Assembly (NCBI RefSeq): GCF_004135205.1
Contig: NZ_CP035490.1
Location: 434,001-498,000, forward strand
Length of the DNA: 64,000 nucleotides
Direction of reading: 5' to 3'
Source: Hahella sp. KA22
GTDB lineage: Bacteria > Pseudomonadota > Gammaproteobacteria > Pseudomonadales > Oleiphilaceae
Both the position numbers and the translations under genes were made by a program. Shown here one piece after another: positions 22,607 to 39,713 of this stretch. The notes beneath the pieces are model-generated. The model did no database searches. It was given only the letters and a program-made list of their open reading frames with translations, and was not told the DNA's origin. How positions within the stretch are numbered: the stretch's first letter is position 1; each line of letters begins with the position of its first letter.

Positions 22607-22627
22607 AGCTTTACGCCTCCAGAACGC

Positions 22628-26091: not shown

Positions 26092-26196
26092 AACCTTGCT
26101 CTTCAGATAAATTCGTTTAGTGGGCGCGGATATTAACAAGCCTTTGTTTAGTATTCAATCAGCTTTTATCGAGAATATTGCAGCGCCCAGAAACGC

Positions 26197-26224
26197 AAAA
26201 AACGGAGCCGGAAGACCGACTCCG
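26197..26224 (-). terminator. Rho-independent terminator after the NAMPT gene
   Basis: Minus-strand stem CGGAGTCGG / CCGGCTCCG with a TCTT loop followed by six T residues. It starts 14 bases past the nicotinamide phosphoribosyltransferase stop. Confidence 0.85.
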
Positions 26225-26237
26225 CCGCAGGACAGGA

Positions 26238-27617
26238 TTATTGCGCTGCGTTGGCCCTAACTTCGTCGAAAGTCCATTCCTTCATCAGGTCGCCATTGCG
26301 GAAGACGGTAACCAGTTGATCTTCCCGATTGCCCAGATCCTGCCGGCGCACTGTCTGAAAGCCGCCATCCAGATCTTTAACCAGCGCCAGAAGTCCTTTC
26401 TTAGAACGCTTGCCCTGATCGGTGATGGGGTCTTTGTAAACATCTCTCCAGATGCCTTTCACGCATATCGCAGACGCTTTCATGGCGAACTTCAACGTAT
26501 CCCGGTTCACCTTCTGCAGCAGCTCTCCACCCATGCCGAAAGCAATATTTTCAGCGCTTTGCTTGCGCGCTTTCATCGCCGCCAGAATAGCTTCGATCGT
26601 GTGTAAAGAGATGCCGTCGCCTTGAATCACCCGGATGCACGCCGGCAATACCCGATATCCTTTGCTGTTGACGGTGAAGCCGAATTTCCGCATCAGTCGT
26701 TCGATAGTTTCGGTCACAATCGCTACAGGATCGCCACTGTCAGGACGCACCACCAAGGTGCCGCCGCTGCGCTCAATCTTGGTTTTCAACGCTTCGCCCC
26801 AGAGGTTGTCGATAGCGTTCCACAAGTCATAAGAGTCGCTGACTACCGCCACCAGTTTGCCGGGCTCGGCGAACTGCTCCAGCATGTTGGCGTAGGCGTC
26901 CACTTCCGCTTCTTTGCCCCAGCTGGTAATGGTGCTGTGCTCCGCCGCAGGGATTGAAAAGCCCGCCATATCAGCGCCGTAGTAACGTCTCGCCGCCATA
27001 ATGCCGCTAACAGTGTCAGTGCCCATGAAGTTCACCAAGTGAGCGGCCCCGCCAATCGCTGCGGTTTCTTCAGAACTCGCGCCGCGAGCGCCAAAGTCGT
27101 GCAGTTTAAATGGCAATCCTTCGATAGTGTCCGCCGTTTCTTCCAGGTAACGCTTGATGATGTTGCGGCAGCTCCAGGATACGGTGGCGACCGTGGTCGG
27201 ATACCAAACCGCTCTCAACAAAGCCGTTTCCACATAGCTGGTCAACCAGGCGCAGTTGCGGTCAGTGTTGATCACCTGCACCATCACGTTTTTCACATCC
27301 ATGACAGTCCCTTCCGGCGCAGCCTGGATTTCTATCGGCAGATAACCCTCGTGTTTATCCAGAATATAGCGCCAGCCTTCTTCATTGAAGGGAACGCCGT
27401 GGGCTTGATACACCAGCTTGGCTTCTTCGATATCGTCCGCGGTAATCGGCTTGGTCAGGTACTCTTTGATGAACATCTGCAGACCGAAGAACACTGCTTT
27501 TTCAAACGCGCCGCCGCGTGATTCGATGTAGCTGGAAACCTGCGTGGCGCCAGCTGGGTACTGCAGGTAGTGAGAGGTTTTATAAGAATCTACGTTTAAG
27601 ATAATGCTGTTTTTCAT
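26238..27617 (-). CDS. nadV: Nicotinamide phosphoribosyltransferase (NAMPT)
   Basis: A 459-residue enzyme that makes NMN from nicotinamide and PRPP. It aligns by eye along its length with human NAMPT: HDFGARGASSEETAAIGGAAHLVNFMGTD (from about 173; D174 is the nicotinamide-selecting aspartate of the HDFG motif), AEHSTITSWG with the phosphorylated histidine at 227, VVSDSYD, VVRPDSGDP and VIQGDG. It lies downstream of nadM in a leftward operon (gap 81 bases) and ends in a terminator. The NrtR-type operator before nadM should regulate both. The same NAMPT plus NMN adenylyltransferase pair occurs in large phages such as Vibrio phage KVP40. Confidence 0.95.
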   Translation of the reverse strand: MKNSIILNVDSYKTSHYLQYPAGATQVSSYIESRGGAFEKAVFFGLQMFIKEYLTKPITADDIEEAKLVYQAHGVPFNEEGWRYILDKHEGYLPIEIQAAPEGTVMDVKNVMVQVINTDRNCAWLTSYVETALLRAVWYPTTVATVSWSCRNIIKRYLEETADTIEGLPFKLHDFGARGASSEETAAIGGAAHLVNFMGTDTVSGIMAARRYYGADMAGFSIPAAEHSTITSWGKEAEVDAYANMLEQFAEPGKLVAVVSDSYDLWNAIDNLWGEALKTKIERSGGTLVVRPDSGDPVAIVTETIERLMRKFGFTVNSKGYRVLPACIRVIQGDGISLHTIEAILAAMKARKQSAENIAFGMGGELLQKVNRDTLKFAMKASAICVKGIWRDVYKDPITDQGKRSKKGLLALVKDLDGGFQTVRRQDLGNREDQLVTVFRNGDLMKEWTFDEVRANAAQ

Positions 27618-27698
27618 GACGGAAATCCTCCGGTCAATGTTTGGGTAAAGGGTGTTGCGGTCTATCCGCGTCCCTCGTTTGTCTTAATAATTTTCCGG

Positions 27699-28772
27699 TT
27701 AGATGCCGGTCATTTCCTGAATGATGAAGTAGTGATCTTCATATAATTTGCCTGGGTCCAGTTCCGCCAGCGGCACCCACATGGCCTGTCTGGCGTCATC
27801 GCCGCCTTTCACTTTCGGCAGCTCGCTGCTTGGCTCCAGCTCAATGTGAAATGCATGAGTGATAGTGCGTCCTCTGGCTGAACGATGAGGATCATCGAAC
27901 ACTTGCTGCGCCTTGATTGAGCCCCTCAACACCGGCGCTGGCACTTTCAGTCGGGTTTCCTCCCGCAACTCTCTCAGGCATGCATCCAGTAATTTTTCAT
28001 TCTGATCTACGAAGCCTCCCGGTAACGCTAACAACCCTTTACCGGGACGCGATTTGCGCTCCACCAGCAGCACATGTCCGCTTTGCACGATAACTGCATC
28101 GACCGTTACGAAAGTGGGCGCGTAGGGCGCTGCGCTCCAGGCGCGTTTGTACTTGGCGATGAAATCATGTTCGTATTTGATTTCCTCATAGTCTTCGCTG
28201 AGACAGAATTTCGCCAGTTTCTCCCGCACCGCCGCTGGCAGCGCCAGATCTGCGTCACTGCTTTCCAGGTAATTCATACCGCCGCGACGATCCGTCTGGT
28301 TAACGCCGAAAATCGCTTCTCTTACCGGCGTGGCGCTGATACCGTCCACATTCTCAACTTCAACGCTTCCCCATTGAGGGAACAGCTTCAGGTAGAAAGA
28401 GCTGTGGTCCTTGCTGTGGCCAATCAAACCCACCTTGGCGGATTTGTGCGGCATACCGTGATGCGCGGTTACCAGCCCCTGAACCGTGGACTGTACGTTT
28501 CTGACCCAGATCTCATCGTTGTAGACAATGTCCATCAGCGGCGCGATATGTACGCGTTGGTTATCTTCTTTGCTGAGGGCGCTGCGCACCATGTCTTCGC
28601 GTTCGTTGACGCTCCAGGGGTTGCGTGTGGAGCGGGGCTGATGCGCCGATCCGCACAAGACAATCATTTGACGCGCTTTGCGCAGTCCCTGTTCAATCAC
28701 CGCAAGGTGACCGCGATGAAAGGGTTGGAAACGTCCGATAAATACTAAAAAGTCGTATTCGAAATTTTGCAT
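27699..28772 (-). CDS. nadM: Bifunctional NMN adenylyltransferase / Nudix hydrolase
   Basis: About 357 residues from ATG 28772 behind AAGGAG; an upstream in-frame ATG at 28859 lacks a ribosome-binding site. The N-terminal domain is a nucleotidyltransferase with GRFQPFHRGH (13-22) and ISATPVREAI. It should join NMN and ATP to NAD+. The C-terminal domain has a Nudix box GGFVDQNEKLLDACLRELREET, with threonine where the G of EExG is usual, typical of ADP-ribose pyrophosphatases. The same fusion is known from Synechocystis slr0787 and Francisella NadM. It feeds on NMN from the downstream NAMPT and may degrade ADP-ribose, the signal for NrtR. Confidence 0.93.
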   Translation of the reverse strand: MQNFEYDFLVFIGRFQPFHRGHLAVIEQGLRKARQMIVLCGSAHQPRSTRNPWSVNEREDMVRSALSKEDNQRVHIAPLMDIVYNDEIWVRNVQSTVQGLVTAHHGMPHKSAKVGLIGHSKDHSSFYLKLFPQWGSVEVENVDGISATPVREAIFGVNQTDRRGGMNYLESSDADLALPAAVREKLAKFCLSEDYEEIKYEHDFIAKYKRAWSAAPYAPTFVTVDAVIVQSGHVLLVERKSRPGKGLLALPGGFVDQNEKLLDACLRELREETRLKVPAPVLRGSIKAQQVFDDPHRSARGRTITHAFHIELEPSSELPKVKGGDDARQAMWVPLAELDPGKLYEDHYFIIQEMTGI

Positions 28773-28879
28773 ATCAGCAATCTCCTTGCTGTGGTTGACG
28801 GGAACCCGGTCTTTCCAGGTCCGCTTAAAACTTTTTCTCCGTGGATTCATGAGTCCCATGAACCCTGTCGATGGATATA

Positions 28880-28898
28880 TAGTGGCATAATGACACTA
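28880..28898. promoter_or_regulatory. NrtR operator upstream of nadM
   Basis: TAGTGGCATAATGACACTA, an imperfect 19-bp palindrome, lies 108 bases before the nadM start. It shares 7-bp-type arms (TAGTGnC ... GnCACTA) with the palindrome in front of nrtR at 30618-30636. It stands between a TTGACC hexamer and a TATATAT run on the minus strand, a position suited to blocking transcription. Confidence 0.82.
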
Positions 28899-28916
28899 AG
28901 TGGTCAAGCGCTATTT

Positions 28917-29918
28917 TCAGACACCCTCTAAAGCATTTGTAACCTGCCTGATGCGCGCTTCAACATCGCCCTTCAGCAGCGCGTACTCTATGTTTCTGCG
29001 CTCCAGCTCCGCGATGATCTCCTGCTGGAAATCCGTGCGATTCACCTCCCCTGAGCGATCCCAGGTATCCTCATAGGGGATGTCGTCGTCGCACAGAAAC
29101 ACATGGTCATAGCGCTGCGTCGCGGCATCCGCCAGACACTCCAGTTCCGGCAATGCGAAGCCATGATAGTAATGAGCGAAATGCCGCGTCGTCAGCGCAT
29201 TGGTGTCCACGAACAAGTAGCGATCACTATCCAGCAAAAGTTTTTCTTCGCGCTCCAGATGGCCTTGTGCGATTTCCACCAGCTGCTCGGGAGCCAGACG
29301 TCGCTCAATCTGATTTTCCTCCCAGTATTCCCGTCCGTACTCCGGCATCCATTGCGTATTAAAGCGCGCCGCCATCGCCTGCGCTAACGTGGTTTTACCG
29401 GTAGACGGGGCTCCCAAAAACACCACTTTCTTTACCAGGTCCCGGTACACCAGCGGATGCACCCAGTCTCTGGCGGCGAAGGGATTTTTGCGCACCTGAG
29501 TAGCGGAGATGGGTACAATCTTTCTGGCTTCATCCACTCGACAGTCCTGCGCGTTGAGATAACGACTGACATGATCGCCATAAAATTCACTGGAGAAGAA
29601 ATGGGTCACCCGCCTGCCAGCCAGACATTGCCCAATGTAGTCCTCCTGCAGCCGACATATCTCCGGCGTATCTCCCACTTCCTGGGGTCCATCCGGGGCC
29701 AGAATTACCTCTGCGTCCGGGTAAAGCGCTTTAATCCAGGACGCCCGCCGTTCCAGTGGAACCTCTATGACATCCGGGCAGTCATAGATCATCACCAGCA
29801 GGTGATCCACCTGCTCCAGTGCTTGTTCGATCATATACTGATGACCTTTATGCAGCGGCGCGAACTTCCCTAACGTCAGACCAACCTTGCGCGGCGCATC
29901 ATACTCAGGCTTTCGCAT
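28917..29918 (-). CDS. nadR: NadR-type NMN adenylyltransferase / nicotinamide riboside kinase
   Basis: A 333-residue bifunctional enzyme. The N-terminal nucleotidyltransferase has GKFAPLHKGH (17-26) and ISATQVR (137-143). The C-terminal kinase has P-loop GAPSTGKT (169-176) and PEYGREYWE. Unlike E. coli NadR it has no N-terminal DNA-binding domain, so it is an enzyme only. It should phosphorylate nicotinamide riboside brought in by PnuC and adenylate NMN to NAD+. Its start overlaps the pnuC stop by 14 bases. With nadM it gives this locus two NMN adenylyltransferases. Confidence 0.92.
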   Translation of the reverse strand: MRKPEYDAPRKVGLTLGKFAPLHKGHQYMIEQALEQVDHLLVMIYDCPDVIEVPLERRASWIKALYPDAEVILAPDGPQEVGDTPEICRLQEDYIGQCLAGRRVTHFFSSEFYGDHVSRYLNAQDCRVDEARKIVPISATQVRKNPFAARDWVHPLVYRDLVKKVVFLGAPSTGKTTLAQAMAARFNTQWMPEYGREYWEENQIERRLAPEQLVEIAQGHLEREEKLLLDSDRYLFVDTNALTTRHFAHYYHGFALPELECLADAATQRYDHVFLCDDDIPYEDTWDRSGEVNRTDFQQEIIAELERRNIEYALLKGDVEARIRQVTNALEGV

Positions 29919-30534
29919 AGTCCGCCTTTATCTCCAGCGTCTGGGTTTGATAACGACGCAGCCATACAAGCAGACCCGCACTCGCCATGACCAGGAAAGT
30001 CGCATACAAAACGGTGGTGGGATACAGACCTTTCTGCCAATACACGCCAATGGCGACGATGTCCACGGCAATCCAGAAGCCCCAGTTGATCAGCTGGCGT
30101 CTGGATAGCAGCCATTGCGCCACCAGACTGGCGACCGTGGTGAATGCATCCGGATAAGGGAGTGAGGCGTCGGTATAGGTGGACATGACATAACCCAGAG
30201 CAAAACTGCCGATAACGGCGACCGCCACCCACAGCAGCGTCATCGTTGGCGGGGTGGGCAACACCACTAAATCATCGTCGCGCCCCCTACCCTGCAGCCA
30301 ATACCACCAGCCATAAAACTGCATCACCACATAAATGCCATGGAGTATGAAGTCGGAATACAGCTTGGCGTCATAAAACACGATCATGTACAGCGCCACC
30401 TGCACCAGCCCGACAGGCCAGCACCAGATATTGCGCCGGATGATCAGGAAAACGCAGATAAAGCCCGCCAGGGAGGCGATGATTTCGATAGCGGAGCCGC
30501 CGAAAAAGCCGACCAAAAAGGATTGTATTTCCAT
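29905..30534 (-). CDS. pnuC: Nicotinamide riboside transporter PnuC
   Basis: A 209-residue membrane protein with about seven helices. The PnuC family pattern is visible in IRRNIWCWPVGLVQVALYMIVFYDAKLYSDFILHGIYVVMQFYGWWYW (about 33-80) and in LINWGFWIAVDIVAIGVYWQKGLYPTTVLY. It admits nicotinamide riboside, trapped by the kinase encoded by the overlapping nadR. It faces nrtR across a shared operator, so it is probably derepressed together with nrtR when NrtR leaves the DNA. Confidence 0.92.
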   Translation of the reverse strand: MEIQSFLVGFFGGSAIEIIASLAGFICVFLIIRRNIWCWPVGLVQVALYMIVFYDAKLYSDFILHGIYVVMQFYGWWYWLQGRGRDDDLVVLPTPPTMTLLWVAVAVIGSFALGYVMSTYTDASLPYPDAFTTVASLVAQWLLSRRQLINWGFWIAVDIVAIGVYWQKGLYPTTVLYATFLVMASAGLLVWLRRYQTQTLEIKADYAKA

Positions 30535-30588
30535 GGTATTACTCTGGAGTTTGGATATGCTTTTATGAATAGATTAAGGGCGTCAGTT

Positions 30589-30617
30589 TTGACACCTCTG
30601 TTCTAGGTCGCTAATAT
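30589..30617 (+). promoter_or_regulatory. Promoter of nrtR (-35/-10)
   Basis: TTGACA (30589-30594) and TAATAT (30612-30617) are separated by exactly 17 bases. The -10 box is inside the NrtR palindrome. On the other strand TTGCAT-16-TAATAT (30637-30664) could be the pnuC promoter, with its -10 in the opposite arm. Confidence 0.75.
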
Positions 30618-30643
30618 TAGTGGCCTAATGCCACTAATATTAG
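30611..30643. promoter_or_regulatory. NrtR operator between pnuC and nrtR
   Basis: A perfect palindrome with 14-bp arms (CTAATATTAGTGGC and its complement) and a 5-bp centre CTAAT. Its core TAGTGGCCTAATGCCACTA (30618-30636) matches the site before nadM. The arms contain the -10 boxes of both divergent promoters, so binding would shut off nrtR and pnuC-nadR together. Confidence 0.88.
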
Positions 30644-30658
30644 TATGTTTTTCAGGTT

Positions 30659-31399
30659 ATGCAAGATCACGCCTCAGAAAAAGACTTTCTCGCCGCTTAC
30701 AACATTCATGACTACGAAGTGCCTCTCACTTCCGTGGACATGGCGATATTCAAGCTCAGGGAGCAGCAACTCGAAGTGTTGCTGGTGAAGCGCTCGCAAC
30801 ACCCCGCCAAAGATACGTGGGCGCTGCCGGGAGGCTTTATTGATCTGCAAAAAGACAATGTCCTTGAAGACACCGCTCATCGGAAGTTAGTGGAAAAAAC
30901 CGGGGTAAAAAGCCCCTATCTGGAGCAGGTCGCCACCTTCGGCGGTAAGCAAAGGGACCCTCGCGGCTGGTCAGTGACAGTGGTGTACTTCGCCCTGGTC
31001 GCCCATGAGGAGATCGATGTCGACCCCAAAGGCGCCAAAGAGGAAACACACTGGGTTCCAGTAACCGAAGCCCTGCGCGACTATAGACTGGCGTTTGATC
31101 ACAACGAGATTCTGCGCCTGTGCCGCGAACGGCTGACCAGCAAGGTGCAATACACAGCGCTGCCGATTCACTTGCTGCCTGAGGAGTTTACACTGACGGA
31201 GCTGCAGAAAGTATTCGAAGTGATTCTGGGCAACGAGGTAGAGAAAAAATCCTTCCGTCGCCGCATCCTGGATGCGGATATTCTGGAGGAAAGCGGCGCC
31301 ATGCGCACCGGCAGCAACCGACCTGCAAAACTGTATCGACTCAAGCGCGGCGTGGAGAATCATTTTTTCCCCAGAACCATCGAAGGACCGCGCAGTTAA
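30659..31399 (+). CDS. nrtR: Nudix-related transcriptional regulator NrtR
   Basis: A 246-residue protein: an N-terminal Nudix-fold domain (LTSVDMAIFKLREQQLEVLLVKR, WALPGGFIDL) and a C-terminal winged-helix domain (LTELQKVFEVILGNEVEKKSFRRRIL, then GSNRPAKLYRL). The Nudix box is degenerate: AHRKLVEKTGV replaces the catalytic REUxEExGU, so it should sense rather than hydrolyse. NrtR repressors of NAD metabolism bind ADP-ribose and release DNA. Two TAGTGnC palindromes, one overlapping its own promoter, support this. NADAR follows after 15 bases. Confidence 0.92.
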   Translation: MQDHASEKDFLAAYNIHDYEVPLTSVDMAIFKLREQQLEVLLVKRSQHPAKDTWALPGGFIDLQKDNVLEDTAHRKLVEKTGVKSPYLEQVATFGGKQRDPRGWSVTVVYFALVAHEEIDVDPKGAKEETHWVPVTEALRDYRLAFDHNEILRLCRERLTSKVQYTALPIHLLPEEFTLTELQKVFEVILGNEVEKKSFRRRILDADILEESGAMRTGSNRPAKLYRLKRGVENHFFPRTIEGPRS

Positions 31400-31414
31400 C
31401 GTCGGAGAGATGTA

Positions 31415-31894
31415 ATGACTGAGAAGAAAACCATTAACTTTTACCTGGCCAACGGCGAATACGGATGCTTTTCCAATTTCTCCCGCGATCCGGTTTACTT
31501 GAAAGACAAGCGCTGGCCTACGTGCGAACATTATTTTCAGGCGCAGAAATTCGCAGGCACTGAACACGAAGAAGCCGTGCGCATGGCGTCAAAACCCATG
31601 GAGGCCGCCAATATGGGACGTGAACGCACGCGCCCTTTGCGGCCGGATTGGGAAGCAGTCAAAGACGACATCATGCGCGAAGCGGTCATGGCCAAATTCG
31701 TTCAGCATGAAAAGCTGACTTCTATACTGTTGGAAACCGGCGACGCCGAGTTGGTCGAGCATACCGCCAATGACCGTTACTGGGCGGATGGCGGCGACGG
31801 TAGCGGCCTGAATATGCTGGGTAAAATTCTGATGGAAGTGCGCGAAGCCATTCGACAAGGTAAGAGCAAATATGAAAACGGTCACTTTATTTAG
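31415..31894 (+). CDS. NADAR-family N-glycosidase (YbiA-like)
   Basis: A 159-residue protein with the NADAR pattern: INFYLANGEYGCFSNFS (7-23), WPTCEHYFQAQKF (34-46), a central KPMEAANMGRERTRPLRPDWE, and a C-terminal GGDGSGLNMLGKILMEVRE. Family members act on riboflavin intermediates (YbiA) or remove ADP-ribose from guanine in DNA (antitoxins of DarT1 systems). Being between NrtR and an ADP-ribosylglycohydrolase gene favours an ADP-ribose role. The next gene begins inside its 3' end (23-base overlap), so the two are translationally coupled. Confidence 0.88.
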   Translation: MTEKKTINFYLANGEYGCFSNFSRDPVYLKDKRWPTCEHYFQAQKFAGTEHEEAVRMASKPMEAANMGRERTRPLRPDWEAVKDDIMREAVMAKFVQHEKLTSILLETGDAELVEHTANDRYWADGGDGSGLNMLGKILMEVREAIRQGKSKYENGHFI

Positions 31895-32219
31895 ACCCAC
31901 AGGCCCGAATGAGCTGGCGCTGGTGGAAGCCAGCGGTTTTAAGCGCTGGCCGCCGCGTTTACCGGAACAACCCATTTTCTACCCGGTTTGCAACGAGGAC
32001 TACGCCCGTCAAATCGCCCGGGACTGGAACGTCAAAGACTCCGGCGTGGGTTACGTCACCCGTTTCGACGTGGATGCGGAATACCTCAGCCAATTCGACG
32101 TCAAAGTCGTCGGCGGTAAGGAACATGCCGAATACTGGATTCCAGCGGAGCAACTGGAAGAATTCAACGATCATATCATCGGCGATATTGAAGTCATCGC
32201 CACGTATAGAGACGAATAG
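31872..32219 (+). CDS. Small conserved-looking protein coupled to NADAR, function unknown
   Basis: A 115-residue protein starting inside the NADAR gene (ATG 31872). Visible features are VTLFRPTGPNELALVEASGF at the start, PPRLPEQPIFYPV, a helix YARQIARDWN, GYVTRFDVD, YWIPAEQLEEFNDHII and a final beta strand VIATYRDE. I recall similar proteins being labelled with ADP-ribosylation terms in databases, but cannot verify this. The R-x-x-G-x-x-E and FYPV elements could belong to a mini ADP-ribosyltransferase-like fold; this is speculative. The overlap with a NADAR gene resembles toxin-antitoxin or enzyme-partner arrangements. Confidence 0.5.
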   Translation: MKTVTLFRPTGPNELALVEASGFKRWPPRLPEQPIFYPVCNEDYARQIARDWNVKDSGVGYVTRFDVDAEYLSQFDVKVVGGKEHAEYWIPAEQLEEFNDHIIGDIEVIATYRDE

Positions 32220-32306
32220 ACAAAAAACCTACCATGCGAATCCACTACGGGCGTTCTTGCAGGCTCGTCATTTTATATAAATGTTTGTTAAAGGTAGTGA
32301 GTTCGC

Positions 32307-35300
32307 ATGTTGGTAAAGGAAAGCCTGATAGTCAAAGAGCTTGGGAGCACCTATTTTGAGCGGGGCGTAAAATATTTTAAGCAACGACGCGTCACTCTGG
32401 TGGAATATGGCGAAGATCACTCCACAGCAACAGTGCGGGGTTCTGGTAACAGTGTTTACCAGGTCTTGGTAACACTTGAAAATGACGCCTATGGCCTGAG
32501 AATAGAAGGGGAATGCTCATGCCCTATTGGCTATAACTGTAAACACGTTGCAGCCACACTGCTCGCCGTGAATGAAAAAAGCCAGATTCCAGCGCAAAAA
32601 GATACTTGGTCTGACCATAACTCGTCTCACCACCCAGATGTAACGCTGGACCTTGACGTCAGGCGCTGGCTTGACCAGTTGGTCGACACAGCAACAGAGG
32701 AAGCAACTCCCGATAGCGCTAATCAGGTTAGTGTGCTCTATTTGCTGAAGCACAACCAAATGAACGGCAATGTCTGCGTCAACGTTATCCAGGCGCGCAC
32801 TCTAAAGTCCGGCGAATACTCCACAAAAACCCAGCGTTACAATATTAGCGCGGCCTTTAACCAGAGTAAGCCAGCCGCCTTCCTGACCAAAGCTGACCTG
32901 GCGATCTTCAAACGCCTGTTATGGTCGCAATGGGGCTCTGACCTACCGTTAACGGAAGAAAGCGGAGCTGACGCCCTTCAGCGCATACTGGCGACGGGAC
33001 GCGCGTACTGGGAAACCCCACAAGGACCAAAGTTATTCAAAGGCGCGCCAGCGCAGGCGGAGTTTGAGTGGCGAGTGGATATGGAGGGCGAACAAACCCT
33101 GAAAATGGTCCCATCACATCTGATAATGGTCGCCACTGATCCGATCTACTGTATCAATACCCACACCGGAGAATGTGGCCAGCTGCATAGTGAACTGCCG
33201 CCGTCCATGCTGATGACGCTTAATCGCGCGCCCAGGTTATCCCCAGTGCAGGCGGGAAAAGTACGCTCGCTTCTGGAGCAACGACTCCCCGGCGCACGAC
33301 TTCCCAAACCCAAAGAGATCGCCGTCGAGAAGGACAGCAAAGTCAAGCCGCAGGTTCATCTTAGCCTTGGGGCGGCAAGCCCTTCTCAAACTGGCTATTT
33401 TCCATATAGAACGAGTCAAGCCGATGTTCCCTACGCCAGGCTGGAGTTTTCCTATCACGATATCCGCGTATCTTATGACTCCGATATTCAGCAAGTGACA
33501 ACGGTCAAAGACAATACCCATCTCATCATTCCCCGGGATTTTCTTGTTGAAGAAACAGCCCTGCGCAAACTAAGAACTCTGGATATGCGCCCGCTCAATA
33601 CCATCGAAACCTATCCGCTCGTCGATGAGGCGCATCAAATGGACCTGAGCTTTGCAAGCGTCGGAGAGTGGCATGGGTTCGCCCAATACGGCATCCCCCT
33701 GTTAGAGAAACAGGGATGGAGTATTACCATTGAGGAGGACTTCCCCTTTCAGTACCTCAATACAGAGGCCGAAGAGCTCTCCTGGTATTCCAATCTCGAT
33801 GAGAGCGACAGCGACTGGTTTGATTTCGACCTCGGCGTGGAAGTCAACGGCGAGCGCATTAACTTGTTACCTGTCCTCTACAACCTGATTAAAGACGCGC
33901 CGGAGGAGTGGGAGCTTCAGACACTGGCCGATTATCCCGGAGATAGCGATGTTCTGCTCCAGGTCGCCCCTGGCCGGTGGATCAAGCTGGATGTCGAGAG
34001 AGTCAGAAACCTGTTAGGCAGTCTCATCGAGCTGTACGACCATGATCCTCTGGTGAACGATAAATTCCGCCTGGAACGAGGACAGGTTGGCCAGCTTCTG
34101 CCGCTCAACGAGGCCATGGCTTCAGTCGGCCTGCGCTGGCTGGGCGCTGATAAACTGACGCGCTTGATTGATCGACTGAAACAGCAGGAGCAAATGAGCC
34201 ATGTCTTCCCCCCCGACTGGTTCAACGCCACCCTCAGAGACTACCAACAAGAGGGACTGAACTGGCTTGGCTTCCTTAGAGAAATCGAAATGGGCGGCAT
34301 CCTGGCGGATGACATGGGATTGGGCAAAACCATACAGACTCTCGCCCTGCTCTCGGTGGAAAAAGCCCAGGGGCGGATGGATCGGCCCTGCCTGATCGTC
34401 GCGCCCACCAGCTTAATGAGCAACTGGCGTAAGGAAGCGGAAAAGTTCGCACCAGAACTGAAAGTACTCGTTCTGCACGGCCCCCATCGCACCGAGCGTT
34501 TCGAACATATAGCCGACAACGACCTGGTTTTGACGACCTATCCGCTACTGCCGCGCGACAGCGAATATCTGCTAAAGCAGGATTACCATTATCTTATTTT
34601 GGATGAAGCGCAAACCATCAAGAATCCAAAGGCGCAGGCTACCCAACTGGTACACAGGCTACAGGCTCGACATCGGCTGTGTCTGACTGGGACGCCGATG
34701 GAAAATCATCTGGGCGAGCTGTGGTCGTTGTTTAACTTCCTCACGCCGGGGCTGCTTGGCGACGATAGAAAGTTCAAAACCCTGTTCCGCACTCCTATCG
34801 AAAAACAGGGCGATCTTGAACGGCAACGCTTGTTATCTAGACGCATCAAGCCGTTTATGTTGCGCCGCACTAAACAAGAGGTCGCGACGGAGCTGCCGGA
34901 GAAAACAGAAATACAACGTACTGTTTTGTTGGAAGGAAAACAGCGGGACCTTTATGAAAGTATTCGCGTCGCCATGGATAAGAAGATTCGTGACGCTATC
35001 GCCAAGAAGGGCGTTAAACGTTCTCATATAGAGATTCTGGACGCATTACTGAAGCTGCGCCAAGTCTGTTGCGACCCATCGCTGCTGAAACTGGACAGTG
35101 CGCGTAAAGTGAAAAACAGCGCCAAGCTGGAAACGCTGATGTCCATGTTGCCCAGCCTGCTTGAGGAAGGCCGCAAAATACTGTTGTTTTCCCAGTTCAC
35201 TTCTATGCTTGGATTGATCGAAGCGCAACTGGACAAAGCCGGTATAGAGTACGTAAAACTGACAGGCGCGACAAAAGACAGAGATACGCCTGTCAGTCGC

Positions 35301-35627
35301 TTTCAAAGCGGAGAGGTCTCTTTGTTTCTGATTAGCCTTAAAGCAGGCGGCGTGGGTTTAAATCTAACCGCAGCGGATACCGTCATCCATTATGACCCCT
35401 GGTGGAATCCCGCCGTTGAAAACCAGGCGACCGACCGCGCCTACCGTATCGGCCAGGATAAGCCTGTGTTCGTTTACAAGTTGATCACCGAAGGAACCGT
35501 GGAAGAAAAAATCGTCGAATTACAAAAGCAGAAACAAGCGCTGGCGGATAATCTACTTGCAGACAAGGCTGAAAAGTTCACCTTCGATGAAGAAGAGCTG
35601 CGTAAGCTATTCGCCCCGGTTGAATAG
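32307..35627 (+). CDS. SWIM zinc-finger SNF2-family ATPase
   Basis: An 1106-residue protein. The N-terminus has a SWIM zinc finger (C70-x-C72-x5-C78-x-H80). The C-terminal half is a full SNF2 helicase core: DDMGLGKTIQT (Walker A), IVAPTSLMSNWRKE, LVLTTYPLL, Walker B LILDEAQTIKN, LTGTPMENHLGELWSLF, LLFSQFTSML and QATDRAYRIGQ. Such HepA/RapA-like proteins remodel protein-nucleic acid complexes and are frequent in phage-defence and repair islands. It follows the small NADAR-coupled gene by 87 bases and precedes the glycohydrolase gene by 11. Its specific target is unknown. Confidence 0.88.
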   Translation: MLVKESLIVKELGSTYFERGVKYFKQRRVTLVEYGEDHSTATVRGSGNSVYQVLVTLENDAYGLRIEGECSCPIGYNCKHVAATLLAVNEKSQIPAQKDTWSDHNSSHHPDVTLDLDVRRWLDQLVDTATEEATPDSANQVSVLYLLKHNQMNGNVCVNVIQARTLKSGEYSTKTQRYNISAAFNQSKPAAFLTKADLAIFKRLLWSQWGSDLPLTEESGADALQRILATGRAYWETPQGPKLFKGAPAQAEFEWRVDMEGEQTLKMVPSHLIMVATDPIYCINTHTGECGQLHSELPPSMLMTLNRAPRLSPVQAGKVRSLLEQRLPGARLPKPKEIAVEKDSKVKPQVHLSLGAASPSQTGYFPYRTSQADVPYARLEFSYHDIRVSYDSDIQQVTTVKDNTHLIIPRDFLVEETALRKLRTLDMRPLNTIETYPLVDEAHQMDLSFASVGEWHGFAQYGIPLLEKQGWSITIEEDFPFQYLNTEAEELSWYSNLDESDSDWFDFDLGVEVNGERINLLPVLYNLIKDAPEEWELQTLADYPGDSDVLLQVAPGRWIKLDVERVRNLLGSLIELYDHDPLVNDKFRLERGQVGQLLPLNEAMASVGLRWLGADKLTRLIDRLKQQEQMSHVFPPDWFNATLRDYQQEGLNWLGFLREIEMGGILADDMGLGKTIQTLALLSVEKAQGRMDRPCLIVAPTSLMSNWRKEAEKFAPELKVLVLHGPHRTERFEHIADNDLVLTTYPLLPRDSEYLLKQDYHYLILDEAQTIKNPKAQATQLVHRLQARHRLCLTGTPMENHLGELWSLFNFLTPGLLGDDRKFKTLFRTPIEKQGDLERQRLLSRRIKPFMLRRTKQEVATELPEKTEIQRTVLLEGKQRDLYESIRVAMDKKIRDAIAKKGVKRSHIEILDALLKLRQVCCDPSLLKLDSARKVKNSAKLETLMSMLPSLLEEGRKILLFSQFTSMLGLIEAQLDKAGIEYVKLTGATKDRDTPVSRFQSGEVSLFLISLKAGGVGLNLTAADTVIHYDPWWNPAVENQATDRAYRIGQDKPVFVYKLITEGTVEEKIVELQKQKQALADNLLADKAEKFTFDEEELRKLFAPVE

Positions 35628-35638
35628 GATAAAAGTAC

Positions 35639-36574
35639 ATGACTGGACAACCAGATAGAAACAATCTCGATAAATACCAGGGCTGCCTGCTGGGCCTGGC
35701 GGTGGGCGACGCCGTGGGCACGACGTTGGAGTTCCGTCCGCGTGGCTCCTTCGAGCCGATCGACGACATGGTCGGCGGCGGTCCATTCGGACTGAAGCCG
35801 GGACAGTGGACCGATGATACTTCCATGGCGTTATGTCTGGCGGAGTCCCTGCTAACCAAACAGGGTTTTGACGCGGCGGATCAGATGACCCGCTATAGCA
35901 ACTGGTGGCAGTGGGGCTATTTCAGTAGCACCGGAAACTGCTTTGATATCGGCAATACGGTGCGCGGCGCTCTCCAGCGCTTTCTGGACAGCGGCGAGCC
36001 TTACTCCGGCTCACTGGACGCCCATAGCGCCGGCAACGGCTCCATCATGCGCCTGGCGCCGGTCGCTATGTACTACAGCCCCCGCATTGAGCAAGTAGTC
36101 AAGTATTGTGGTGAAAGTTCGCGCACCACTCACGGCGCTGACGAATGCGTGGACGCCTGCCGCTTGATGGGCGTTATCCTGCATCAATTACTCGTCGGCG
36201 ACGCCAAAGAGGACGTGCTGGAAGACCCCATGTACGTGCCCTACACGGACAAAGTCGCCCAGATTTCCATGGGGGATTACCTGAATAAAAGCGAAAGCGA
36301 AGTGCGCGGGACTGGCTACGTGATTGACGCGCTCGAAGCCGCCCTGTGGTGCTTCGCCCATACGGATAACTTCCAGGACGCGGTGCTGAAGGCGTCAAAC
36401 CTTGGCGACGACGCCGACACTACCGCCGCCATCGTCGGCCAGATCGCCGGCGCATACTATGGCGTCAACGGTATTCGCCAGGACTGGCTGGATAAACTGC
36501 ATATGCGCGACGACATCGCCGCCATGGCGGAGCAGTTGCACGCAGCGCAGCCGGCGAAAGAACCGCAGGCATAA
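35639..36574 (+). CDS. ADP-ribosylglycohydrolase (DraG type)
   Basis: A 311-residue all-helical hydrolase. Metal-binding signatures of the DraG/ARH family are GLAVGDAVGTTLEF (19-32), WTDDTSMA (57-64), HSAGNGSIMRLAP, THGADECVDA and GDDADTTAAIVGQIAGAYYG near the C-terminus. It should cleave ADP-ribose from modified proteins or nucleic acids. It is tightly linked (11 bases) to the SNF2 gene and lies in the NrtR island. With NADAR it gives the locus two different ADP-ribose-removing enzymes. Confidence 0.92.
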   Translation: MTGQPDRNNLDKYQGCLLGLAVGDAVGTTLEFRPRGSFEPIDDMVGGGPFGLKPGQWTDDTSMALCLAESLLTKQGFDAADQMTRYSNWWQWGYFSSTGNCFDIGNTVRGALQRFLDSGEPYSGSLDAHSAGNGSIMRLAPVAMYYSPRIEQVVKYCGESSRTTHGADECVDACRLMGVILHQLLVGDAKEDVLEDPMYVPYTDKVAQISMGDYLNKSESEVRGTGYVIDALEAALWCFAHTDNFQDAVLKASNLGDDADTTAAIVGQIAGAYYGVNGIRQDWLDKLHMRDDIAAMAEQLHAAQPAKEPQA

Positions 36575-36602
36575 CGTCCGACATCTATACAAGGAGTTTA
36601 GA

Positions 36603-37367
36603 ATGCCACATCCCATGCAGGATCGCTGGTTCATGCCCGCCCCCCAGGCGGGCAAAGCGATCAGACTATTCTGCTTTCCCTACGCCGGCGGCAGTCCCAA
36701 TGCTTTTCGAAGCTGGGTGAAGCGTTTTCCAGGCGACATTGATGTCGTGGTGGTGCGTCTGCCCGGTCGAGAAAATCGCATCAGCGAGGCGCCTTTCAGC
36801 GAATGGCCGCCATTAGTGGAAGCCGTGCTGCAAGCGATTGTACCCTATCTGAACCAGCCTTTCGCTTTCTTTGGCCACAGCCTCGGCGGCCGCGTTATCT
36901 TCGAATTGACCCGACGCCTGCAATCCTATGGCGCGCCCTTGCCTGAACATATGTTTATTTCCGGCTGTCGCTGTCCTCATCTGAGCAGTAGCCAGCCGTT
37001 CATACACCAGCTGCCAATGGAAGGGCTGATAGAAAGAATCCGCCAAATGAACGGAGCCCCGGAGGCGGCGCTACAGGACCAGCAATTGATGGCGCTGTTA
37101 GAGCCCATGTTGCGTGCGGACTTCAAGCTTTCCGAGTGTTGGAGCGGCGACAAATCACAGACATTACGGGTTCCCATCACCGCTCTAAGCGGGCAGGACG
37201 ACCCTATCGACGCGCCCGCGCGCATGCATGAGTGGGAAGATTACACCAGCAGTCGGTTTCAATTGCGCACGTTCCCCGGGGACCACTTTTTCATCCGCAG
37301 CAGCGAACAGGAAGTCACAGCCTTTATCAGCCAGGTACTCTTGGAAAACGCATTGCTTCCGGCTTAA
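36603..37367 (+). CDS. Type II thioesterase (GrsT-like)
   Basis: A 254-residue alpha/beta hydrolase from ATG 36603 behind AAGGAG. Features are RLFCFPYAGGSPNAFRSWVKRF (21-42), the nucleophile elbow GHSLGG with Ser93, ALSGQDDPID with the acid residue, and FPGDHFFI with the catalytic His. Such enzymes clear misprimed acyl groups from nonribosomal peptide or polyketide synthases. No synthase is in the window, so it looks out of place between ADP-ribose and RNA-repair genes, although its spacing (28 bases) suggests cotranscription with the glycohydrolase gene. Confidence 0.85.
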   Translation: MPHPMQDRWFMPAPQAGKAIRLFCFPYAGGSPNAFRSWVKRFPGDIDVVVVRLPGRENRISEAPFSEWPPLVEAVLQAIVPYLNQPFAFFGHSLGGRVIFELTRRLQSYGAPLPEHMFISGCRCPHLSSSQPFIHQLPMEGLIERIRQMNGAPEAALQDQQLMALLEPMLRADFKLSECWSGDKSQTLRVPITALSGQDDPIDAPARMHEWEDYTSSRFQLRTFPGDHFFIRSSEQEVTAFISQVLLENALLPA

Positions 37368-37636
37368 GGCTGGACGCATGCGTCAATCCCTACTGGAACC
37401 TTTGTCTCAACGCCGCTAAACTTTTGCGTTTTCCACATCAGGTTTACCCAGTTCACCTCGGATACGGTCATGTAATGGCGATCGCACCCTCAATATCAGC
37501 TTTTGCTACGGCGTCTTAACTGACGACAGTATTGCTTCGTCTCTTCTTCAGCGCATAGCAAGCTGACTCTTTTGAATCTCCGCAAGACGTTTTCCTGTGG
37601 AGGAATCAATACGGATTTTGTTTTTGAGGAGGCGGT

Positions 37637-38506
37637 ATGTTTATCCGCAAATATCCCCGCACGCCCCACCTGCAAGGGTCGCGGCTACAGCCGGGGGACA
37701 GCGCATCGGATCAGGTTCCCTATTCGCAACTGGCCGGACGTTATCTGGTCATCGAAGAAAAACTCGACGGCGCCAATGCCGGCGTCAGTTTCGACGCATC
37801 CGGCGCATTGCGTCTGCAAAGTCGCGGGCATGTGCTGACCGGCGGCGGTCGCGAGTCGCAGTTCGCGCAGTTTAAGTCCTGGGCCACAGTGCATCAGGAG
37901 CGTTTGTTCGAAATTCTGGGAACCCGTTACACCCTGTACGGGGAATGGATGGCGTCGAAGCACACGGTGTTTTATGACCGCTTGCCGCATCTATTTGCTG
38001 AATTCGATATTCTCGACACCGAGACGGGCGAATTTCTCTCCACGTCGGCGCGTCGACGCATGCTAAAGGATTCACCGGTGCTTTCCGTTCCGGTCTTATA
38101 TGCCGGACTGGCGCCCAAGCGCTTGGCGGAACTGCAAAAACTGGTGCGCCCATCGCTGGCGAAAACCACACAATGGCGCAACAGCCTGGAGCAGGTCGCA
38201 CATCAGGAAGCGCTGGATTTTGATCTGGTTAAACGACAGACCGACAACTCGGATTTGTCCGAAGGACTGTATATAAAAATCGAAGAAAACGGACGTACCG
38301 TCGGCCGTTTGAAATGGGTGAGACATGACTTTATTCAGGCCATTCTGGATAGCGGCAGCCATCACCTGAACCGTCCTATCTTTCCCAATCAGCTGGCGCG
38401 GGGCGTGGATATGTACGCCTCACAGCTTACCTTGAAGTGGGAGGACCTCGGCCACGATGAGCCGGATTCTCAGGAGCCGGGCGCCACAGAGGAGGCATGC
38501 TCATGA
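37637..38506 (+). CDS. RNA ligase (Rnl2-like nucleotidyltransferase)
   Basis: A 289-residue ATP-dependent ligase. Motif I is EEKLDGANAG with the AMP-accepting Lys42, motif Ia LQSRGH, motif III LYGEWMA and LFAEFDIL, motif IV SEGLYIKIEE, and motif V GRLKWVR. It should seal 5'-phosphate to 3'-hydroxyl RNA ends. The ATG follows GAGGAGG. The stop overlaps the start of the HD-Pnk gene as ATGA, so ligase and end-healing enzyme are coproduced. The ~270 bases upstream show no recognised site. Confidence 0.88.
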   Translation: MFIRKYPRTPHLQGSRLQPGDSASDQVPYSQLAGRYLVIEEKLDGANAGVSFDASGALRLQSRGHVLTGGGRESQFAQFKSWATVHQERLFEILGTRYTLYGEWMASKHTVFYDRLPHLFAEFDILDTETGEFLSTSARRRMLKDSPVLSVPVLYAGLAPKRLAELQKLVRPSLAKTTQWRNSLEQVAHQEALDFDLVKRQTDNSDLSEGLYIKIEENGRTVGRLKWVRHDFIQAILDSGSHHLNRPIFPNQLARGVDMYASQLTLKWEDLGHDEPDSQEPGATEEACS

Positions 38507-39645
38507 TCAGCTACCAGCAACTCCAAAACTGGATGCCCGCCGATGGCGCCGAGCCGGACTGGCGCGCACTGTGGGAAGGCCTGCCTGATCTGCAGCCTTT
38601 GGCGAGCACGCCCCAGGACCCGTATTACCATGCGGAAGGGGACGTGTGGACGCACACCAAAATGGTAGTGAATGAGCTGTTGGCGGGGGAAACCTATCAG
38701 CAGGCGGATGCGGAACAGCGCTTTGTGCTGTTCTACGCCGCCCTGTTGCATGACATCGCCAAACCGGCCACCACTATCGTGCGCCCGGACGGCGGCGTCG
38801 GCAGTCCCCGACACTCCCGACGCGGCGCAGTGGACGCCCGGATACTGCTGTGGCGAGCCGGCGTTCCTTTTGCCTTGCGGGAACGCATTTGTCGCATTAT
38901 CGCTCAGCATCAGGTTCCGTTTTTCATCTTCGACGATCGTGCGCAACGACGTCCGGAATTTCTGGCGCATCGTATGTCCTGGGAAGTTAGTCTGCAGGAA
39001 CTGTATGCGGTGGCGCTGGCGGACATGAGCGGCAGAACCTACGAGAAGAAAGACGACAGCATCGCGGACATCGCGCTATTCAGGGAGTTAGCGGTGCAGG
39101 AAGCCTGTTGGCGACAACCGCGCGCGTTTCCTGACGCAGTGATTCGCCAGCAGTATTTCCGCTCCGACGGCGCCACAGCGGCGGATTATGGATACCAGCA
39201 ACCGGAAGGCTCCGAGGTGGTCTTGTTATGCGGACTGCCCGCCTCCGGCAAAAACACCTGGGCGAGCCGACATCGACCTGACTGGCCTACCGTCTCCTAC
39301 GACGACGCCCGTGAGGAGATGGGCCTCAAGTACGGCCAGAACGAAGGCAGAGTCGCGCATCACGCCACCGATATGGCTAAAGAGCACTTGCGGCGCAAGC
39401 AGCCCTTTGTGTGGAACGCCACGCATCTGTCACAGGAAATGCGCAGTAATGCTTTGGACCTGTTGTACGCCTACCATGCGAAAATCCGCATCGTCTATCT
39501 GGAAGCTGGAGAGAAAACCTTGCGCGCCCGCAATCGCAAACGGGATAGCACGGTCACCGATAAAGTGATCGACCGACTGCTGTACCGCTGGGAAATCCCG
39601 TTGCCGAGCGAAGCGCATTGGGTGGAGTACGTGGTAGAGGATTGA
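38503..39645 (+). CDS. HD phosphohydrolase-polynucleotide kinase (HD-Pnk), RNA end-healing
   Basis: About 380 residues from ATG 38503, which overlaps the ligase stop and has AGAGGAGG at a good distance; an ATG 6 bases earlier is less well spaced. The N-terminal HD domain has H51, HD at 83-84 (LLHDIAKP) and HQVPF. The C-terminal kinase has P-loop GLPASGKNTW (244-253), SYDDAREEMG and VWNATHLSQEMR. The same architecture is the Runella slithyformis HD-Pnk, which removes 2',3'-cyclic or 3'-phosphate and phosphorylates 5'-OH ends. Together with the upstream ligase it makes a complete heal-and-seal RNA repair pair. Confidence 0.87.
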   Translation: MISYQQLQNWMPADGAEPDWRALWEGLPDLQPLASTPQDPYYHAEGDVWTHTKMVVNELLAGETYQQADAEQRFVLFYAALLHDIAKPATTIVRPDGGVGSPRHSRRGAVDARILLWRAGVPFALRERICRIIAQHQVPFFIFDDRAQRRPEFLAHRMSWEVSLQELYAVALADMSGRTYEKKDDSIADIALFRELAVQEACWRQPRAFPDAVIRQQYFRSDGATAADYGYQQPEGSEVVLLCGLPASGKNTWASRHRPDWPTVSYDDAREEMGLKYGQNEGRVAHHATDMAKEHLRRKQPFVWNATHLSQEMRSNALDLLYAYHAKIRIVYLEAGEKTLRARNRKRDSTVTDKVIDRLLYRWEIPLPSEAHWVEYVVED

Positions 39646-39666
39646 TAGCGGCCAAATAAGTCCAAT

Positions 39667-39697
39667 CAATGCATCCCGTTTATCGCCGGATGCATTG
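39667..39697. terminator. Hairpin between convergent HD-Pnk and ABC exporter genes
   Basis: A perfect 10-bp stem CAATGCATCC / GGATGCATTG with an 11-base loop. No clear T tract follows on either strand, so termination is likely but not certain. Confidence 0.5.
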
Positions 39698-39713
39698 AGT
39701 CAGACCCATGAGG

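What the first reader, a model, noticed from the sequence alone, without database searches (positions are those of the whole stretch)
26197..39645. NrtR-controlled island joining NAD+ rebuilding, ADP-ribose removal and RNA repair
Within 13 kb the sequence shows NAMPT, NadM-Nudix, NadR-type NMNAT/NR kinase, PnuC, NrtR, NADAR, a small NADAR-coupled protein, a SWIM-SNF2 ATPase, DraG-type glycohydrolase, RNA ligase and HD-Pnk. Established knowledge: NAMPT plus NadM occurs in large T4-like phages, NADAR genes were noted near NAD genes, and HD-Pnk with ligase heals RNA breaks. Inference: one response restores NAD+ after NADase or ADP-ribosyltransferase attack, strips ADP-ribose from nucleic acid or protein, and repairs cleaved tRNA. 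It could be host immunity repair or a captured phage counter-defence module.
Basis: partly seen in the sequence, partly recalled or inferred. Interest (0 to 1): 0.85.

Follow-up and report, generated by a model that had tools for sequence, protein, structure and literature searches.

The report
ADP-ribose-switched NAD rescue and repair island
In some Hahella bacteria, genes for rebuilding NAD+, for predicted removal of ADP-ribose tags and for likely mending of cut RNA lie side by side around a switch that is predicted to sense ADP-ribose, and related groupings in other Hahella species and in two bacteria of another family suggest that cells likely rebuild NAD+ and undo such damage as one response.

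Summary
The eleven named genes are real. I found the likely NrtR operator: TAGTGGC-N5-GCCACTA at 30618-30636 and a one-mismatch copy at 28880-28898, kept in four Hahella species. It likely covers nadM-NAMPT, pnuC-nadR and nrtR-NADAR-Small-(SNF2)-ARH. None lies before the ligase/HD-Pnk pair, which follows a 269-bp gap. In other NrtR-NAMPT loci an ADP-ribose eraser is again present but of varying fold: Macro (G004, G006), NADAR (G176), ARH (G819); G075 has none on a 6-kb contig; 34 NrtR loci without NAMPT show none. RNA repair is a looser partner: G176 has KptA, RtcB-PrfH and ligase-HD-Pnk, G819 has KptA, but of 80 HD-Pnk loci only 1, a Hahella, has NAD genes near. Best reading: an ADP-ribose-derepressed regulon that likely restores NAD+ and erases ADP-ribose, with RNA repair attached in some lineages and separately promoted here. 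A captured phage module is unlikely.

The parts
26238..27617 (-). NAMPT (nadV), nicotinamide phosphoribosyltransferase
   Evidence: PF04095 + PF18127; NF006629 684.9 bits
27699..28859 (-). NadM-Nudix, NMN adenylyltransferase with intact Nudix box
   Evidence: NF003786 641.6 bits; Nudix box GFVDQNEKLLDACLRELREE
28880..28898 (.). NrtR-type operator 2, TAGTGGC-N5-GACACTA, between nadR and nadM
   Evidence: 1 mismatch; kept in G001, G002, G005
28917..29918 (-). NadR-type NMN adenylyltransferase / NR kinase
   Evidence: PF01467 + PF13521; TIGR01526 197.7 bits, below its cut-off of 341
29905..30534 (-). PnuC transporter
   Evidence: PF04973 191.9 bits
30589..30617 (+). sigma-70-like promoter of nrtR, TTGACA-17-TAATAT, touching the operator
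   Evidence: among the best matches of the scan, but the scan finds 8 against 13 in shuffles, so only its position argues for it
30618..30636 (.). NrtR-type operator 1, TAGTGGC-CTAAT-GCCACTA, inside a longer dyad 30611-30643
   Evidence: 0 mismatches, the only exact one in the window; invariant in 4 species
30659..31399 (+). NrtR repressor with degenerate Nudix box
   Evidence: PF21906 + PF00293; 207 bits to 3gz5; no Nudix box match
31415..31894 (+). NADAR, YbiA class
   Evidence: PF08719; 176 bits to YbiA 2b3w; active-site spacing kept
31872..32219 (+). Small: 115-aa protein with predicted ADP-ribosyltransferase fold, overlaps NADAR by 23 bp
   Evidence: no Pfam hit; AlphaFold2 mean pLDDT 91.3; Foldseek and VIA hits to ARTs
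32307..35627 (+). SWIM-SNF2 ATPase, absent from this place in G005
   Evidence: PF00176, PF00271, PF04434; PADLOC DpdE model 847 bits; absent in L018
35639..36574 (+). ARH, Tri1-like ADP-ribosyl-glycohydrolase
   Evidence: PF03747 275.8 bits; 292 bits to 6dre; TDD and DDAD motifs
36603..37367 (+). thioesterase (start chosen by me from the frame)
   Evidence: PF00975 159 bits
37637..38506 (+). RNA ligase (called RnlA here), motif I EEKLDG
   Evidence: PF09414 115.6 bits; motifs
38497..39645 (+). HD-Pnk: HD phosphohydrolase + P-loop kinase
   Evidence: PF01966 + PF13671; motifs; profile hits T4 and other polynucleotide kinases

Best explanation
In the H. chejuensis group of Hahella, the repressor NrtR, predicted to let go of its DNA when ADP-ribose builds up, likely switches on together the genes that rebuild NAD+ and the genes that are predicted to strip ADP-ribose tags. 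Shown by sequence: two operator-like dyads (TAGTGGC-N5-GCCACTA and a one-mismatch copy) sit at the pnuC/nrtR and nadM promoters and are kept in four species; NADAR, Small and ARH follow nrtR as overlapping or close genes (in G005 the Small stop and ARH start overlap). Inferred: NADase or ADP-ribosyltransferase attack raises ADP-ribose; NrtR leaves its operators; NAMPT, NadM, NadR and PnuC refill NAD+; NADAR removes ADP-ribose from guanine and ARH from arginine, and the ADP-ribose they free keeps the switch open. Least sure: that the RNA ligase / HD-Pnk pair, behind a thioesterase and a 269-bp gap, takes part by read-through or through a promoter of its own.
For: Operators; in 64 kb the pattern GTG[GT]C-N5-G[CA]CAC, drawn from these sites, occurs only at these two places. 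In G004 and G006 two such sites lie between nrtR and nadM, so pnuC-nadR here sits between what look like once neighbouring operators. Erasers of three folds sit in NrtR-NAMPT loci: the window and G001, G002, G005 (NADAR, ARH); G004 nadM-NAMPT-Macro, 105 bp behind NAMPT; G006 the same with three ORFs between; G176 NrtR | PRPPS-NAMPT-NADAR-KptA-DUF4291, then RtcB-PrfH and ligase-HD-Pnk on the same strand; G819 NrtR | PRPPS-NAMPT-ARH-KptA. G176 and G819 each have 3 exact TGTC-N5-GACA sites, all in the nrtR-PRPPS intergenic region, against means of 0.24 and 0.29 per 20 kb in single-base shuffles (maxima 2 and 3 of 200). In the drawn sample, NrtR loci with NAMPT have an eraser in 2 of 3, those without in 0 of 34 (Fisher p = 0.0045). 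G176 and the window use HD-Pnks about 30% alike, so the pair was probably recruited twice. NrtR release by ADP-ribose is published for M. smegmatis NrtR, at 50 mM (PMC6800001, passages). P. aeruginosa raises a NADAR and an RtcB homologue under one regulatory system (PMC11888443, passage). Active-site motifs of NADAR, ARH, HD-Pnk and ligase are present.
Against: The Fisher test includes the window; without it the split is 1 of 2 against 0 of 34 (p = 0.056, hand calculation), and 18 of the 35 other fetched NrtR stretches are under 15 kb. G075 has NrtR-NAMPT-PRPPS and no eraser on its 6.3-kb contig. G176 and G819 are of one family and probably share an ancestral locus, so they count as about one recurrence. 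The four island species are 89-99% alike in most of these proteins, so their shared order is weak evidence. G003 has NAMPT-NadM without NrtR or eraser in 20 kb, and a 53% ARH elsewhere without such neighbours. 0 of 12 other ARH places and 79 of 80 HD-Pnk loci lack the NAD genes. In 7 of 9 genomes with KptA it has no NrtR or NAMPT in 4.8-20 kb. No NrtR-type site precedes the ligase. Genome-wide the 19-bp pattern at one mismatch gives 3 sites in G000 against 2 for the reversed control. No expression or binding data exist here. The thioesterase has no place in the model.
Confidence: 0.63

Rival explanations
1. Three unrelated neighbours: an ordinary NrtR NAD-salvage regulon, a NADAR/ART-fold/ARH set, and a free-standing ligase-HD-Pnk repair pair, with no common response.
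For: HD-Pnk and ligase stand together without NAD or eraser genes almost everywhere: ligase found in 64 of 80 HD-Pnk loci, NAD genes in 1 of 80. Thioesterase and 269-bp gap before the ligase. No operator there.
Against: NADAR, Small and ARH directly follow nrtR behind its operator. Erasers recur in NrtR-NAMPT loci of G004, G006, G176 and G819. KptA, Macro, Small, ligase and HD-Pnk lie together in a Tannerella MAG (L093).
Confidence: 0.28
2. A captured phage counter-defence cassette (NARP2-like NAD rebuilding plus erasers plus RNA repair).
For: NAMPT relatives in 1,910 of 50,697 phage records, up to 60% identity; ARH in 59 records, up to 50%; Serratia phage BF has ARH, a NadR-like enzyme (31%) and PnuC (32%) within 7 kb; two IMG/VR contigs hold HD-Pnk at 50-52%; jumbo phages combine NAD salvage, NADAR and RNA repair (PMC7824862, passages).
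Against: NAMPT is in 7 of 7 Hahella genomes at 71-100%, so it looks vertical; HD-Pnk is in 3 annotated phage records at about 30% while chromosomal Pseudomonas copies are 57-58%; NrtR and its operators; no tRNA in the window. No trees were made.
Confidence: 0.08
3. NADAR-Small is a YbiA-YarT-like toxin-antitoxin pair that was picked up downstream of nrtR (not exclusive with the best reading).
Against: Small has 6,968 relatives and stands without NADAR or Macro in 13 of 13 other Pseudomonadota loci (1.5 kb each side) and 17 of 17 viral loci, and without NADAR in three other Hahella species; its first conserved residue is R8 where YarT is described with His; it is about 70% identical in Actinomycetota such as Nocardioides (73%, a list of the best 120 only), unlike a typical toxin (inference).
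Confidence: 0.12
4. Plain metabolism: NrtR adjusts NAD salvage and the erasers only recycle ADP-ribose and riboflavin intermediates, without any attack.
For: YbiA also cleaves riboflavin intermediates (PMC11543638, passages); NrtR regulons of NAD genes are known.
Against: ARH is nearest to Tri1, named an ADP-ribosylarginine hydrolase; KptA, RtcB-PrfH and HD-Pnk in G176 point to damage.
Confidence: 0.2

Closest known systems
NrtR regulons of NAD metabolism (Rodionov 2008, recalled; PMC6800001 read in passages)
   Same: Nudix-WHD repressor, divergent NAD operon, palindromic operator, ADP-ribose as predicted ligand
   Different: regulon here also takes in NADAR, ARH and perhaps SPFH + NAD-kinase-like genes
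ARG-centred host systems of Iyer et al. 2022 (PMC9503650; abstract, sections 3.7.3 and 3.8 and passages read)
   Same: ARH with a Nudix transcription factor, Macro or NADAR as occasional partners; model of ADP-ribose derepression
   Different: partners there are phosphatases, chaperones and ARPP; section 3.8 names no NAD-salvage genes, RNA ligase or KptA; here an ART-fold gene lies in the operon
Phage NADAR neighbourhoods (PMC9503650 section 3.4.3, passage)
   Same: NADAR beside NAD-salvage genes such as NadM, and noted links of NADAR to RNA-repair systems
   Different: phage genomes; no NrtR named in that passage
NARP2 phage NAD+ rebuilding pathway (listed, one passage; composition recalled)
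   Same: NAMPT plus NMN adenylyltransferase
   Different: chromosomal, NrtR-linked and joined to erasers
YbiA-YarT toxin-antitoxin pair (PMC11125620, sections 2.1 and 2.2 read)
   Same: YbiA-class NADAR followed by a small ART-fold protein
   Different: Small is mostly found without NADAR and has R8 where YarT is described with His
Tri1 immunity hydrolase (6dre; function recalled)
   Same: hydrolase domain, 292 bits over residues 5-306
   Different: lacks the first 60 or so residues of 6dre; a cognate toxin was not searched for
HD-Pnk with RNA ligase (Runella and others, recalled)
   Same: adjacent, overlapping gene pair with both active-site sets
   Different: next to an NrtR regulon only in Hahella and G176 among the loci seen

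Membership tests
NrtR repressor | Nudix domain plus NrtR winged helix | tested here: met
   PF00293 and PF21906 above cut-off; below the NF050029 equivalog cut-off, 320.9 of 400 bits
NrtR repressor | Nudix hydrolase box degenerate | tested here: met
   no GX5EX7REXXE match
NrtR repressor | palindromic site at its own and NAD promoters | tested here: met
   binding itself not tested
NrtR repressor | release from DNA by ADP-ribose | not testable with these tools
   needs protein
NADAR, YbiA class | active-site Glu/Asp/Trp and Glu/Lys spacing | tested here: met
   E115, D120, W123 and E38, K45 match the spacing of E125, D130, W133 and E43, K50 in PMC11543638
Tri1-like ARH | hydrolase domain with both metal motifs | tested here: met
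Tri1-like ARH | N-terminal extension | tested here: not met
   residue 5 aligns to residue 64 of 6dre
Tri1-like ARH | cognate FtsZ-targeting toxin nearby | not tested
   no search was made for it
ART superfamily (Small) | ART fold | tested here: met
ART superfamily (Small) | catalytic residues | tested here: inconclusive
   R8 nearly invariant, E87 invariant in 43 rows; not superposed residue by residue
YbiA-YarT toxin-antitoxin | toxin gene kept together with its NADAR | tested here: not met
   Small without NADAR in 13 of 13 and 17 of 17 other loci
ARG-centred host system (Iyer 2022) | ARH with Nudix transcription factor | tested here: met
   nrtR and ARH in one direction, operator-like site upstream
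ARG-centred host system (Iyer 2022) | no ADP-ribosyltransferase coupled to the ARH | tested here: inconclusive
   Small has an ART fold but unknown activity
NARP2 | phage-encoded NAMPT + NMN adenylyltransferase | tested here: not met
   chromosomal; NAMPT in 7 of 7 Hahella genomes
HD-Pnk RNA repair | HD and P-loop motifs with adjacent RNA ligase | tested here: met
HD-Pnk RNA repair | RNA end healing and sealing | not testable with these tools
   needs assay

The most novel reading that the evidence does not exclude
NrtR is an ADP-ribose alarm: at least two bacterial lineages have each built, from different parts, an NrtR-run damage regulon that couples NAD+ rebuilding to interchangeable ADP-ribose erasers (NADAR, ARH, Macro) and to RNA-end repair (KptA, RtcB-PrfH, ligase-HD-Pnk), with the erasers' own product holding the switch open.
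Probability: 0.37. Interest if true: 0.8.

Novelty: new variant of a known kind. Interest (0 to 1): 0.6.

Why it matters
If true, ADP-ribose is not only a metabolic signal but a damage signal, and one repressor links NAD+ depletion defence, reversal of ADP-ribosylation and RNA repair. It can be tested directly: named operator sites, one known ligand, and a set of genes whose joint induction can be measured. It also places a widespread unnamed protein family (6,968 relatives) in the ADP-ribosyltransferase fold.

Tried and rejected
Rfam scan of 25600-45200: no hit. PDB sequence search for Small and for the ligase: nothing useful. tRNA scan: none. Defence-library scan of 9 proteins: the SNF2 hits DpdE and Zorya helicase models, but no other protein of those systems was among the hits of the nine, so I did not call it a Dpd or Zorya system. 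Small as an obligate NADAR partner: rejected. Relaxed operator core AGTGGC-N5-GCCACT at one mismatch: 18 in G000 against 20 for the reversed control, so useless as a genome-wide screen. A Fisher test that includes the window is circular in part; both versions are given. Viral HD-Pnk loci: 6 of 20 were scanned for neighbours, none had NAD or eraser genes. In the fold comparison no family can be excluded by its absence from the list.

Literature limits: Burroughs and Aravind 2016 (PMC5062991) and Rodionov 2008 (PMC2330246) are not held, and de Souza and Aravind 2012 was not looked up; the first and last are the likeliest places for an earlier description. That NrtR with NADAR or KptA in one bacterial locus is otherwise undescribed rests only on the searches.

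Full report
What is there. The window is 64 kb of a single 6.96-Mb contig (G000). Going left from 30.6 kb on the minus strand are pnuC, a NadR-type gene, nadM-Nudix and NAMPT; going right on the plus strand are nrtR, NADAR, Small, SNF2, ARH, a thioesterase, an RNA ligase and HD-Pnk. NADAR and Small overlap by 23 bp and ligase and HD-Pnk by 10 bp; the thioesterase ends at 37367 and the ligase starts at 37637.

Control. Between pnuC and nrtR lies a dyad of 14-bp arms, CTAATATTAGTGGC-CTAAT-GCCACTAATATTAG, whose inner 19 bp are invariant in four species; G002 has one base fewer in the outer right arm. In the more distant G004 and G006 the nrtR-nadM intergenic region holds two sites with the same core, TAGTGGC-N5-GCCACT, at up to one mismatch, which defines the operator by comparison. 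In the window a second copy, TAGTGGCATAATGACACTA, lies 20 bp before the called nadM start. It is kept in four species, and in G005 the odd base has moved to the other half. With up to three mismatches the window has only one more match, at 16753; 3 matches in all are about what shuffles give (mean 1.8), so exactness and position, not number, carry the case. A TTGACA-17-TAATAT promoter runs up to operator 1, but the scan as a whole finds fewer promoters than shuffles.

A third site. At G000:C1:4963402 a one-mismatch site and, a few bases on, a weaker one lie just before an SPFH (Band_7) gene, whose start I chose, followed by a gene weakly like NAD kinase 2 (E 2.8e-5; no Pfam hit). The pair of sites is kept in four species with small changes, and the SPFH gene is found at E <= 1e-20 in exactly those 4 of 7 Hahella genomes that have the island. 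Counts alone would not single it out: 3 sites in G000 against 2 for the reversed pattern.

How it was put together. NAMPT is in 7 of 7 Hahella genomes. In G004 and G006 nrtR stands divergent from nadM-NAMPT. In G004 a Macro-domain gene follows NAMPT after 105 bp and then a PhyH gene; in G006 the same Macro-PhyH pair lies on the same strand behind three further ORFs without Pfam hits. In G004 nadR-pnuC lies about 5 kb from NAMPT. In G003 NAMPT-NadM stands without NrtR or eraser in 20 kb, and a 53% ARH lies on another contig. In the H. chejuensis group nadR-pnuC now sits between the two operators and NADAR-Small-SNF2-ARH follows nrtR. G005 lacks SNF2 there, and its Small stop codon overlaps the ARH start, so NADAR-Small-ARH is a tight set and SNF2 an optional part. 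HD-Pnk is in 5 of 7 Hahella genomes; the G006 copy is on a different contig from its NAMPT and by position is probably the H. ganghwensis copy L108, 29% identical.

Does it recur? HD-Pnk as anchor: 4 of 369 genomes of the class have it. One of the three others, G176, carries NrtR divergent from PRPPS-NAMPT-NADAR-KptA-DUF4291, followed on the same strand by RtcB, PrfH (RF-1 domain), two small genes, RNA ligase and HD-Pnk, with RtcB-RtcA-RlaP further on; G261 and G342 have only the ligase beside it. In the larger scan 80 of 156 confirmed loci were kept; 57 have at least 19 kb. The ligase was found in 64 of 80, RtcB in 5, NAD genes only in Hahella sp. HN01 (L058 has a doubtful 21-bit NrtR hit and L059 a PRPPS hit), and KptA-Macro-Small only in a Tannerella MAG, where the order is KptA, Macro, Small, TatD, ligase, HD-Pnk. 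The Macro call there rests on solved macrodomains (5e3b, 234 bits), as Pfam gives 17 bits against a cut-off of 22.

NrtR as anchor: 35 of 274 genomes of the class, 37 places, of which 3 have NAMPT in the stretch seen (G000, G176, G075); 2 of those 3 have a NADAR or ARH, and 0 of the other 34 a NADAR, ARH or Macro; 18 of the 35 other stretches are under 15 kb. ARH as anchor: 11 of 369 genomes; in 12 other places, 5 of them at most 8 kb long, no NrtR, NADAR, NAMPT, ligase or HD-Pnk. One, in G342, lies directly beside a Macro gene, and 4 of the 12 have a WYL regulator within about 4 kb (four ORFs picked by eye, all four confirmed), as Iyer et al. describe for other ARH systems. KptA in 118 relatives of G176: 9 have it; G819 has NrtR divergent from PRPPS-NAMPT-ARH-KptA, while the other seven have no such neighbours. 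G176 and G819 each have three exact TGTC-N5-GACA sites, all between nrtR and PRPPS and none elsewhere in 20 kb; the dyad has the same layout as GTGGC-N5-GCCAC of Hahella. Taken together, 8 of the 9 genomes in which I saw NrtR with NAMPT (G000, G001, G002, G004, G005, G006, G176, G819; not G075) have an eraser on the same side or behind NAMPT, but these nine were not drawn at random and several are close kin.

How it likely works. NrtR of M. smegmatis leaves DNA in 50 mM ADP-ribose and showed no hydrolase activity (PMC6800001, passages); the window's NrtR has a degenerate Nudix box and matches the structure 3gz5 at 207 bits. NADARs remove ADP-ribose from guanine (PMC11125620 sections 2.1-2.2, PMC11543638 passages) and from guanosine in RNA (PMC11833690, abstract only). 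The ARH is nearest to Tri1, an ADP-ribosylarginine hydrolase by NCBI's name. So the most likely chain is attack, ADP-ribose, NrtR release, NAD+ refill plus de-ADP-ribosylation. Every step after the operators is inferred. RNA repair in the window has neither an NrtR-type site nor tight spacing; its claim rests on G176, G819 (KptA only) and the Tannerella MAG (no NAD genes seen). A NADAR and an RtcB homologue are both raised by one defence regulator in P. aeruginosa (PMC11888443, passage).

Known or new? Iyer et al. 2022 (PMC9503650; sections 3.7.3 and 3.8 read; other parts in passages) predicted ARH systems run by Nudix transcription factors that sense ADP-ribose, with Macro and NADAR as occasional partners, and noted phage NADARs beside NAD-salvage genes and NADARs linked to RNA repair. 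PMC11543638 says that NADAR was named for its links to NAD+ metabolism and RNA processes (passage). That covers much of this. Section 3.8 names no NAD-salvage genes, KptA or ligase. Papers found with both NrtR and NADAR: 1, the same paper. Two likely earlier sources could not be read. What I could not find described is the joining of all three arms under NrtR in a bacterial genome; I therefore call it a new variant of a known kind.

Noticed in passing
G000:C1:4962369-4963450 (L205, L225): SPFH/Band_7 gene with a NAD-kinase-2-like neighbour behind a tandem NrtR-type operator; present in the same 4 of 7 Hahella genomes as the island.
   Followed up: partly
L037:315-19676 (G176): RtcB-RtcA-RlaP, ligase-HD-Pnk, RtcB-PrfH, KptA, DUF4291, NADAR, NAMPT and NrtR within 20 kb.
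   Followed up: partly
L150:10668-11883 (G004) and L151:5831-7039 (G006): Macro-domain gene with a PhyH-type dioxygenase gene behind NAMPT on the same strand.
   Followed up: partly
L093:1022-11080 (Tannerella MAG): RtcB, PrfH-like, KptA, Macro, Small, TatD, ligase and HD-Pnk all on one strand.
   Followed up: partly
L236, L237, L235, L241: WYL-type regulators within about 4 kb of ARH genes.
   Followed up: no
21578-23095 -: CesT-type chaperone gene (PF05932) beside a 342-aa protein with a weak deaminase-like match (Pput2613-deam E 0.02, below cut-off), perhaps a secreted effector.
   Followed up: no
43790-44950 -: DRB0094-type RNA ligase (TIGR02306 221 bits) 4 kb from the island, also seen in G001 and G005.
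   Followed up: no
42377-43714 +: NO VEIN C-terminal protein that matches candidate defence family PDC-S36 (313 bits).
   Followed up: no
L239:8662-10197 - (G342): ARH directly beside a Macro-domain gene, another eraser pair.
   Followed up: no
32220-32306: Gap between Small and SNF2 holds a short inverted repeat (CATGCGAA ... TTCGCATG) at the edge of the optional SNF2 gene.
   Followed up: no
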